DNA from: Candidatus Nitrosopumilus sp.
GTDB taxonomy: Archaea > Thermoproteota > Nitrososphaeria > Nitrososphaerales > Nitrosopumilaceae
Length of the DNA stretch: 41,549 bases
Reading direction: 5' to 3'
Assembly (NCBI GenBank): GCA_003702495.1
Contig: REGH01000005.1
Span: 1-41,549 of the forward strand
Below are positions 41,058 to 41,537 of the stretch, piece by piece (position 1 is the stretch's first letter; each line of letters opens with the position of its first letter). The position numbers and the translations under genes are program-made. The notes beneath the pieces are model-generated. The model did no database searches and was not told the DNA's origin. It saw only the letters and a list, made by a program, of their open reading frames with translations.

Positions 41058-41215
41058 GTTAGGATCTATTCGATCTGACGTTAACAGTTCAAATGATCCG
41101 CGAAAATTTGTTAACAAAATGGTGTGTTAACATTGACTGCGTAACTCGTGCCTAGTCATTTTTTTGTTATTAACAGTTCTTTTCATTCTAAACCCCAAAA
41201 TAAAGAAGTATCCGT

Positions 41216-41238
41216 GCCTGGAATGGAAATAAAGGGGT
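41216..41238 (+). promoter_or_regulatory. ORB-like element (copy 1): gcctggaatggaaataaaggggt
   Basis: 23-bp exact direct repeat of 41278-41300; contains a TGGAAA..AAAGGGGT core resembling archaeal origin recognition boxes. Confidence 0.75.
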
Positions 41239-41277
41239 AGGATTTTAGATATTCACAGTGTTAACGTCAATCTTAAC

Positions 41278-41300
41278 GCCTGGAATGGAAATAAAGGGGT
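41278..41300 (+). promoter_or_regulatory. ORB-like element (copy 2): gcctggaatggaaataaaggggt
   Basis: Exact copy of 41216-41238; start-to-start distance 62 bp. Confidence 0.75.
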
Positions 41301-41366
41301 CAAAATAGGGTTTTTGGGATTTTTCTTAACATTAGATTAACATTATTGTTAACTTCCAAGGAAACC

Positions 41367-41388
41367 CACACACCTTTGTTTCCACTCT
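41367..41388 (-). promoter_or_regulatory. ORB-like element, inverted: reverse complement agaGTGGAAACAAAGGTGTGTG
   Basis: GTGGAAACAAAGG core matches my recollection of the archaeal ORB/mini-ORB consensus; perfect 17-bp inverted partner at 41518-41534. Confidence 0.7.
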
Positions 41389-41517
41389 TCTTTTTTCTAA
41401 TTTTTTTATTTTAGAAAAAACAAAAACTAACTAAAAATAATTAATTACAAACTAAACTAGAATTACTATTCTATACTATACTCTCATAATTGAGATATGA
41501 TTAAGATGAAATTGATA
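41384..41517. other. AT-rich candidate duplex-unwinding element
   Basis: Strongly AT-rich, near-homopolymeric tracts (ttttttctaatttttttattttagaaaaaacaaaaactaactaaaaataattaatta) between inverted ORB-like arms. Confidence 0.6.
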
Positions 41518-41534
41518 GGAAACAAAGGTGTGTG
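41518..41534 (+). promoter_or_regulatory. ORB-like element (GGAAACAAAGGTGTGTG)
   Basis: Perfect inverted repeat of 41367-41383. Confidence 0.7.
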
Positions 41535-41537
41535 AGT

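What the first reader, a model, noticed from the sequence alone, without database searches (positions are those of the whole stretch)
41060..41537. Candidate thaumarchaeal chromosomal replication origin (oriC)
In a genome where most intergenic gaps are under about 150 bp, about 480 bp are non-coding here. They contain four ORB-like elements (two + strand at 41216 and 41278; one inverted at 41367-41388; one + at 41518), an AT-rich DUE-like stretch and a cluster of TTAAC motifs. The region sits beside the start of a truncated gene and near polD. Established knowledge: archaeal origins (Sulfolobus oriC1, Pyrococcus oriC) combine inverted ORBs (TGGAAAC..AGGGG-type) flanking an AT-rich DUE upstream of orc1/cdc6. 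Inference: this is the Orc1/Cdc6-bound origin. I recall that orc1/cdc6 lies at the start of the N. maritimus genome numbering, after genes like those seen here, but could not verify it.
Basis: partly seen in the sequence, partly recalled or inferred. Interest (0 to 1): 0.88.

Follow-up and report, generated by a model that had tools for sequence, protein, structure and literature searches.

The report
Archaeal replication origin plus second binding-site array
This stretch is almost certainly where an ammonia-oxidising archaeon starts copying its chromosome; besides the expected initiator binding sites it carries a second, very conserved set of short repeats and sits beside the gene for an unstudied DNA-binding protein found at origins across much of the phylum, a likely unrecognised part of the start machinery.

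Summary
The window ends at a 100-N scaffold gap whose flanks are an identical 127-bp overlap. Beyond it the cut gene is Orc1/Cdc6 (Orc1-1 type; closest solved structures are the A. pernix and S. solfataricus initiators), followed by PolD small subunit. The 480 bp hold four ORBs: two in tandem 62 bp apart, then an inverted pair flanking a 128-bp, 83% AT unwinding element. Spacing is kept across Nitrosopumilaceae, and the strict ORB occurs nowhere else in the genomes searched. A single origin was already mapped in the close relative N. maritimus, so the origin itself is an expected homologue.

Two things appear undescribed in the literature I could search. (1) The TTAAC cluster is a second conserved array: its sites are as conserved as the ORBs, and it is enriched in most families of the class. 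In other lineages it becomes TTCAC. (2) The divergent gene at 40671-41057 encodes a MecI/BlaI-like winged-helix "hypothetical protein" beside orc1 in 69/69 family genomes and 32/34 others of the class. Where orc1 and this gene have separated, ORBs stayed with one or the other. That the protein binds the array is inference.

The parts
41058..41537 (.). oriC: intergenic replication origin between the winged-helix gene and orc1
   Evidence: architecture conserved in relatives
41217..41238 (+). ORB-A, CCTGGAATGGAAATAAAGGGGT
   Evidence: mean column identity 0.96 in 44 genomes
41279..41300 (+). ORB-B, perfect copy of ORB-A, 62 bp further on
   Evidence: 61-62 bp spacing kept in nearly all family genomes, 59-62 bp in several other families
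41366..41388 (-). ORB-C, inverted; GGTGTGTGGG variant end; left border of the unwinding element
41389..41516 (.). AT-rich (83%) duplex-unwinding element between the inverted ORB pair
41427..41456 (.). Near-invariant 30-bp core of the unwinding element, CTAACTAAAAATAATTAATTACAAACTAAA (may also be orc1 promoter)
41517..41535 (+). ORB-D, overlapping the region just before the orc1 start codon
41080..41353 (.). TTAAC array: sites at 41080, 41110, 41126, 41170, 41260, 41273, 41326, 41337, 41348 (five are GTTAAC palindromes)
40671..41057 (-). Divergent gene: 128-aa winged-helix protein (hypothetical protein), origin-linked throughout the class
41538..41549 (+). First four codons of orc1/cdc6 (400 aa from this ATG, continues after the scaffold gap as L003:2766-3968)
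35079..38456 (-). DNA polymerase D large subunit DP2 (replication-gene neighbourhood)

Best explanation
The 480 bp are the chromosomal replication origin (oriC) of a Nitrosopumilus-type archaeon, of the Orc1-1/ORB kind. Orc1, encoded immediately downstream, binds four ORBs. The inverted pair ORB-C/ORB-D flanks the AT-rich element and, by analogy with Sulfolobus oriC1, would recruit two MCM helicases to it. The tandem pair ORB-A/B, six helical turns apart on one face, would act as an upstream initiator-binding or regulatory block. ORB-D abuts the orc1 start, so Orc1 binding could also damp its own expression. Between and upstream of the ORBs lies a second conserved array (TTAAC). The most likely reader of that array is the winged-helix protein encoded on the other side of the origin, acting as an origin-associated nucleoid, initiation or timing factor. 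Shown here: the sequence elements, their conservation, the initiator gene and the linkage. Inferred: all protein binding and the loading steps.
For: Orc1/Cdc6 is the next gene, with the only Cdc6_lid match in the genome. Four ORBs, none expected by chance, and the strict ORB only at this locus in 12 of 14 genomes searched. Same order, orientation and spacing of boxes in relatives. Inverted pair around an 83% AT element. Purine skew of N. maritimus inverts here. One origin reported for N. maritimus (PMC4010727). Array: TGTTAA is the most enriched hexamer in 40 origins, 261 against 31 expected. Winged-helix gene beside orc1 in 69/69 and 32/34 genomes.
Against: No replication or binding experiment was done on this organism; the genome is a fragmented assembly, so its own skew could not be run. 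Skew support comes from 20 sampled stretches of one relative and GC skew alone is not significant. For the array reader: the link between the winged-helix protein and the array rests on linkage and on co-variation with only about three motif changes on the tree.
Confidence: 0.94

Rival explanations
1. The stretch is only a large divergent regulatory region: ORBs serve Orc1 autoregulation, the TTAAC array is the operator of the winged-helix repressor for its own gene and orc1, and replication starts elsewhere.
For: The array lies between two divergent promoters, and the protein resembles MecI/BlaI repressors, which bind operators near their own genes. Part of the array (41080-41131) is next to the winged-helix start.
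Against: Strict ORBs occur only here. N. maritimus has one mapped origin and its genome is numbered from this orc1 (PMC4010727, PMC5797428). In genomes where the two genes are far apart, the array stayed upstream of orc1 with the ORBs in four of them and was not enriched upstream of the winged-helix gene in three of those four (G217 borderline), so it is not simply that gene's own operator.
Confidence: 0.04
2. It is the origin, but the TTAAC/TTCAC array is read by a protein other than the neighbouring winged-helix protein (for instance a general nucleoid protein), and the winged-helix gene is a neighbour with another job.
For: Array and winged-helix gene are not strictly tied: six genomes whose ORBs sit beside the winged-helix gene show no clear TTAAC/TTCAC array, and in four the array stayed with orc1 after the gene moved away. 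Column 93 is only narrowly the best covarying column.
Against: No clear array was found upstream of Orc1 in seven lineages lacking the protein, one marginal. The best covarying column of the protein lies in the recognition helix, and the pairing held in additional f4 and f7 genomes examined afterwards.
Confidence: 0.35
3. The array plus winged-helix protein is a centromere-like partition site beside the origin rather than a replication-initiation element.
For: Fold matches include the partition proteins TubR and AspA among many winged-helix hits; origin-proximal partition sites are common in bacteria (general knowledge).
Against: Those matches are weak and non-specific (all E above 0.004). No partition ATPase gene was seen between the winged-helix gene and DP2 or directly after orc1. 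Array sites are interleaved with ORBs at fixed positions.
Confidence: 0.12

Closest known systems
Origin of Nitrosopumilus maritimus SCM1 (single origin mapped by Pelve et al. 2013, as reported in PMC4010727)
   Different: ORB-B has one core mismatch there and ORB-C is diverged. The mapping paper itself was not in the library, so I do not know what it says of the array.
Sulfolobus/Saccharolobus oriC1 (Orc1-1, ORB2-DUE-ORB3, ucm/UBP)
   Same: Orc1-1-type initiator gene adjacent, inverted ORB pair around an AT-rich element, total span about 130 bp (PMC12141716). An accessory motif with its own binding protein is the functional parallel.
   Different: The accessory motif is a multi-copy array outside the unwinding element, not a single ucm inside it; the 11-bp ucm does not match here beyond chance. 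UBP is reported only from Desulfurococcales and Sulfolobales, and the protein here is a winged helix, not a UBP fold.
Common archaeal ORB motif of Ori-Finder 2 (TCCA[CG]T[TG]GAAA[TC][GA]AAGGGGT, PMC4164010)
   Same: ORB-A/B match 17 of 20 positions, including all of GAAATAAAGGGGT.
   Different: The dyad half is TGGAA instead of TCCAS; ORB-C/D end in GGTGTGTGRG instead of GGGGT, a distinction kept in the close relatives.
WhiP / Sulfolobus oriC3 winged-helix initiator
   Same: A winged-helix gene next to an origin.
   Different: WhiP defines its own origin without Orc1 (PMC12141716); this protein is small (128 aa), has an N-terminal beta-beta-alpha part and lies at an Orc1/ORB origin. No direct sequence comparison with WhiP was made.

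Membership tests
Orc1-1/ORB-type archaeal oriC | Lies next to an orc1/cdc6 gene | tested here: met
   orc1 ATG at 41538; Cdc6_lid and Cdc6_C above cut-off, TIGR02928 above cut-off
Orc1-1/ORB-type archaeal oriC | Several ORB repeats matching the archaeal consensus | tested here: met
   Four boxes, none in 300 shuffles; 17/20 to the common motif of PMC4164010
Orc1-1/ORB-type archaeal oriC | Inverted ORBs flanking an AT-rich unwinding element | tested here: met
   ORB-C (-) and ORB-D (+) around 128 bp with 83% AT
Orc1-1/ORB-type archaeal oriC | Inflection of nucleotide skew | tested here: inconclusive
   Own genome too fragmented; in N. maritimus purine skew differs between halves cut here (p 0.007), GC skew does not (p 0.12)
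Orc1-1/ORB-type archaeal oriC | Replication initiates here in vivo | not testable with these tools
   Reported for one locus in N. maritimus (PMC4010727 citing Pelve 2013)
Orc1-1/ORB-type archaeal oriC | Orc1 binds the boxes | not testable with these tools
   Nearest Orc1 structures are 2v1u (A. pernix) and 2qby_A (S. solfataricus), E about 1e-82
ucm/UBP-containing origins (Sulfolobales, Desulfurococcales) | ucm motif in the unwinding element | tested here: not met
   Best match 8/11, reached by 87% of shuffles
Penicillinase_R (MecI/BlaI) family, for the winged-helix protein | Pfam PF03965 above its curated cut-off | tested here: not met
   19.8 bits against a cut-off of 22.6; CopY_TcrY far below its cut-off; fold similarity only

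The most novel reading that the evidence does not exclude
Origins in much of this archaeal phylum carry a second sequence-specific binding system besides Orc1/ORB: an array of short sites (TTAAC, or TTCAC in other lineages) read by an ancient, origin-linked winged-helix protein whose recognition-helix residue 93 (V/I/L against T) sets the preferred base. It would be an origin factor analogous in role to UBP or to bacterial IHF/Fis/SeqA, but unrelated to them.
Probability: 0.5. Interest if true: 0.85.

Novelty: new variant of a known kind. Interest (0 to 1): 0.68.

Why it matters
Archaeal initiation is mostly known from Sulfolobus, haloarchaea and Thermococcales. A 2025 study of UBP (PMC12141716) closes by asking whether more divergent lineages have analogous origin proteins. 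The locus offers a concrete candidate in one of the ocean's most abundant archaeal groups and their relatives: a named gene, a named motif, a predicted specificity residue and a natural base swap to test it with. It also gives a practical origin marker, since the winged-helix gene stayed with the ORBs in several genomes where orc1 had moved away.

Tried and rejected
(1) ucm/UBP parallel: by eye the unwinding-element core (TTACAAAC) resembled ucm, but the best match is no better than chance. (2) A second TTAAC cluster conserved in close relatives (G000:C4:9070 and equivalents) looked like another operator; it is an inverted repeat just after the stop codon of another gene, with extended TTAACGA/TCGTTAAC, more likely a terminator-like or local element. 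(3) Array as operator of the winged-helix gene only: rejected as a full account because the array stays with orc1 and ORBs in four genomes where the genes are separated. (4) A formal test that residue 93 and the motif co-evolve: only about 3 motif changes on the tree and 1-3 independent pairs, so no significance can be claimed; column 93 has the highest mutual information (0.82 bit) but columns 114 and 56 follow at 0.81 and 0.78. (6) The Pelve 2013 mapping paper is not in the library.

Full report
WHAT IS THERE. The window is G000:C13:1-41549 of a 1.27-Mb, 93-contig genome. The last 127 bases of the window recur with 100% identity right after a run of 100 Ns: an assembler overlap across a scaffold gap, so the gene that the window cuts is continuous in reality. 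That gene begins at the ATG at 41538 (MSDPIDRLLDAAES...), is 400 aa long from this start, and carries Cdc6_lid, Cdc6_C and AAA domains above Pfam cut-offs. It is the only Cdc6_lid match in the genome, fits TIGR02928 (orc1/cdc6 family replication initiation protein) above its cut-off, and its nearest solved relatives are 2v1u (A. pernix) and 2qby_A (S. solfataricus Cdc6-1), E about 1e-82. The next gene, on the other strand, is PolD small subunit DP1; PolD large subunit DP2 lies at 35079-38456. Linkage of cdc6, oriC and DP1 is known in Euryarchaeota (PMC2643942).

THE ORIGIN. Four ORBs are present and far beyond chance. ORB-A and ORB-B are perfect 22-bp copies, 62 bp apart; ORB-C is inverted; ORB-D overlaps the approach to the orc1 start codon. 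ORB-C and ORB-D flank a 128-bp element of 83% AT, with the GAAA sides facing the element and the G-rich ends pointing outward. In 69 Nitrosopumilaceae origins the tandem pair keeps 61-62 bp spacing in nearly all genomes, and the arrangement of tandem pair, inverted box and box near the start codon recurs in several other families of the class. The strict ORB TGGAAAYNAAGGGGT occurs only at this locus in the 12 of 14 genomes that have it, twice in eleven of them and once in N. maritimus. Inside the unwinding element a 30-bp stretch (41427-41456) is almost invariant in 44 genomes; it may also be orc1 promoter. In 20 stretches sampled around that genome, purine skew is mostly negative on the first half and mostly positive on the second, and of ten diameters the cut at orc1 separates the halves best. 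That is supportive but weak. The literature reports one mapped origin in N. maritimus (PMC4010727, citing Pelve et al. 2013, which I could not read).

THE SECOND ARRAY. TTAAC/GTTAA occurs 14 times (nine sites) in the 480 bp against 2.8 expected, and no other 480-bp window of the 41.5 kb exceeds 5 apart from those overlapping the origin; in 400 kb of N. maritimus the densest other window has 8 against 14. Across 44 close relatives the TTAAC columns are 93-100% identical, as high as the ORBs, against 72% for unannotated columns. Over 40 origins (one per genus in the family, plus 20 from ten other families), TGTTAA (261 against 31 expected) and GTTAAC (102 against 7) are the most enriched hexamers, ahead of ORB words. 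Families f4, f7 and f9 lack it. In 20 origins from outside the class the leading hexamer is instead TGTGAA (91 against 11, in 19 of 20), i.e. TTCAC, and f4 and f7 inside the class also have TTCAC.

THE WINGED-HELIX GENE. The gene at 40671-41057 is a 128-aa protein annotated only as hypothetical where named. Its model (mean pLDDT 76.9, C-terminal domain around 90) shows an N-terminal beta-beta-alpha part and a C-terminal winged helix; best folds are MecI/BlaI, E 0.004 and weaker, and the Pfam Penicillinase_R score is below cut-off. It is divergent from orc1 across the origin in 69/69 family genomes, found in 116/121 genomes of the class, within 4 kb of orc1 in 32/34 class genomes outside the family (the two others lie on different contigs; three cases are at the two ends of one contig and are counted as linked on the assumption that it is circular), and in 23 of 46 tabulated genomes from outside the class. 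Where the two genes are separated (10 genomes examined), ORBs lie upstream of orc1 in four and upstream of the winged-helix gene in six, never both. So the gene is tied to the origin and is not just a passenger of orc1.

DOES THE PROTEIN READ THE ARRAY? For: linkage; no clear array in seven lineages without the protein (one marginal case, G205 with 5 TTCAC against 1.1); and the residue two before the invariant STYL of the recognition helix (position 93) is T in 48 of 50 TTCAC origins and non-T in 33 of 34 TTAAC origins, with further f4 and f7 genomes agreeing after the pattern had been noticed (one exception, L179). These counts include many close relatives. Against: the tree shows only about three motif changes, so shared ancestry explains most of the agreement; columns 114 and 56 score almost as high as column 93; and six origins that sit beside the winged-helix gene show no clear array. 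I put the binding claim at about one half.

MECHANISM. Shown: elements, conservation, linkage. Inferred from Sulfolobus (PMC12141716): Orc1 on the inverted ORB pair recruits MCM to the unwinding element. Inferred here: the tandem ORB pair and the interleaved TTAAC sites form an upstream nucleoprotein block, with the winged-helix protein as its likely second component, affecting initiation, timing or orc1 expression.

NOVELTY. The origin is a known kind and an expected homologue of a mapped one. Nine literature searches in the open-access library found no description of the array or of the linked winged-helix protein; subscription papers and unsearched archaeal gene catalogues may mention it. 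Filed as a new variant of a known kind.

Noticed in passing
window 41423-41549 and G000:C13:41650-41776: The scaffold gap of 100 Ns is flanked by an identical 127-bp sequence, a typical k-mer overlap left unmerged by the assembler.
   Followed up: yes
window 40504-40662 (+): 53-aa AbrB/MazE-like DNA-binding protein gene (PF04014) just beyond the winged-helix gene.
   Followed up: no
window 39773-40378 (+): 201-aa protein with a hydrophobic N-terminus and a C-terminal winged-helix domain (HTH_27), near the origin.
   Followed up: no
L075:2585-2603 (G000:C4) and equivalents in L076, L077, L078: Conserved TTAACGA...TCGTTAAC inverted repeat between a lysine-rich protein gene and a hemerythrin-like gene.
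   Followed up: partly
window 41427-41456: 30-bp almost invariant core inside the AT-rich element of 44 origins; function unknown, possibly promoter or a protein site.
   Followed up: partly
L232 (G228), L230 (G206), L222 (G305): Origins beside the winged-helix gene but without orc1 show other enriched words (TACATA/ACATAA in G228, GTTACA in G206, TCTACA in G305), perhaps further variants of the array.
   Followed up: no
G054, G107, G187 and several f4 genomes: Some fairly complete assemblies lack an orc1 or winged-helix match; probably assembly breaks at the origin, but not checked.
   Followed up: no
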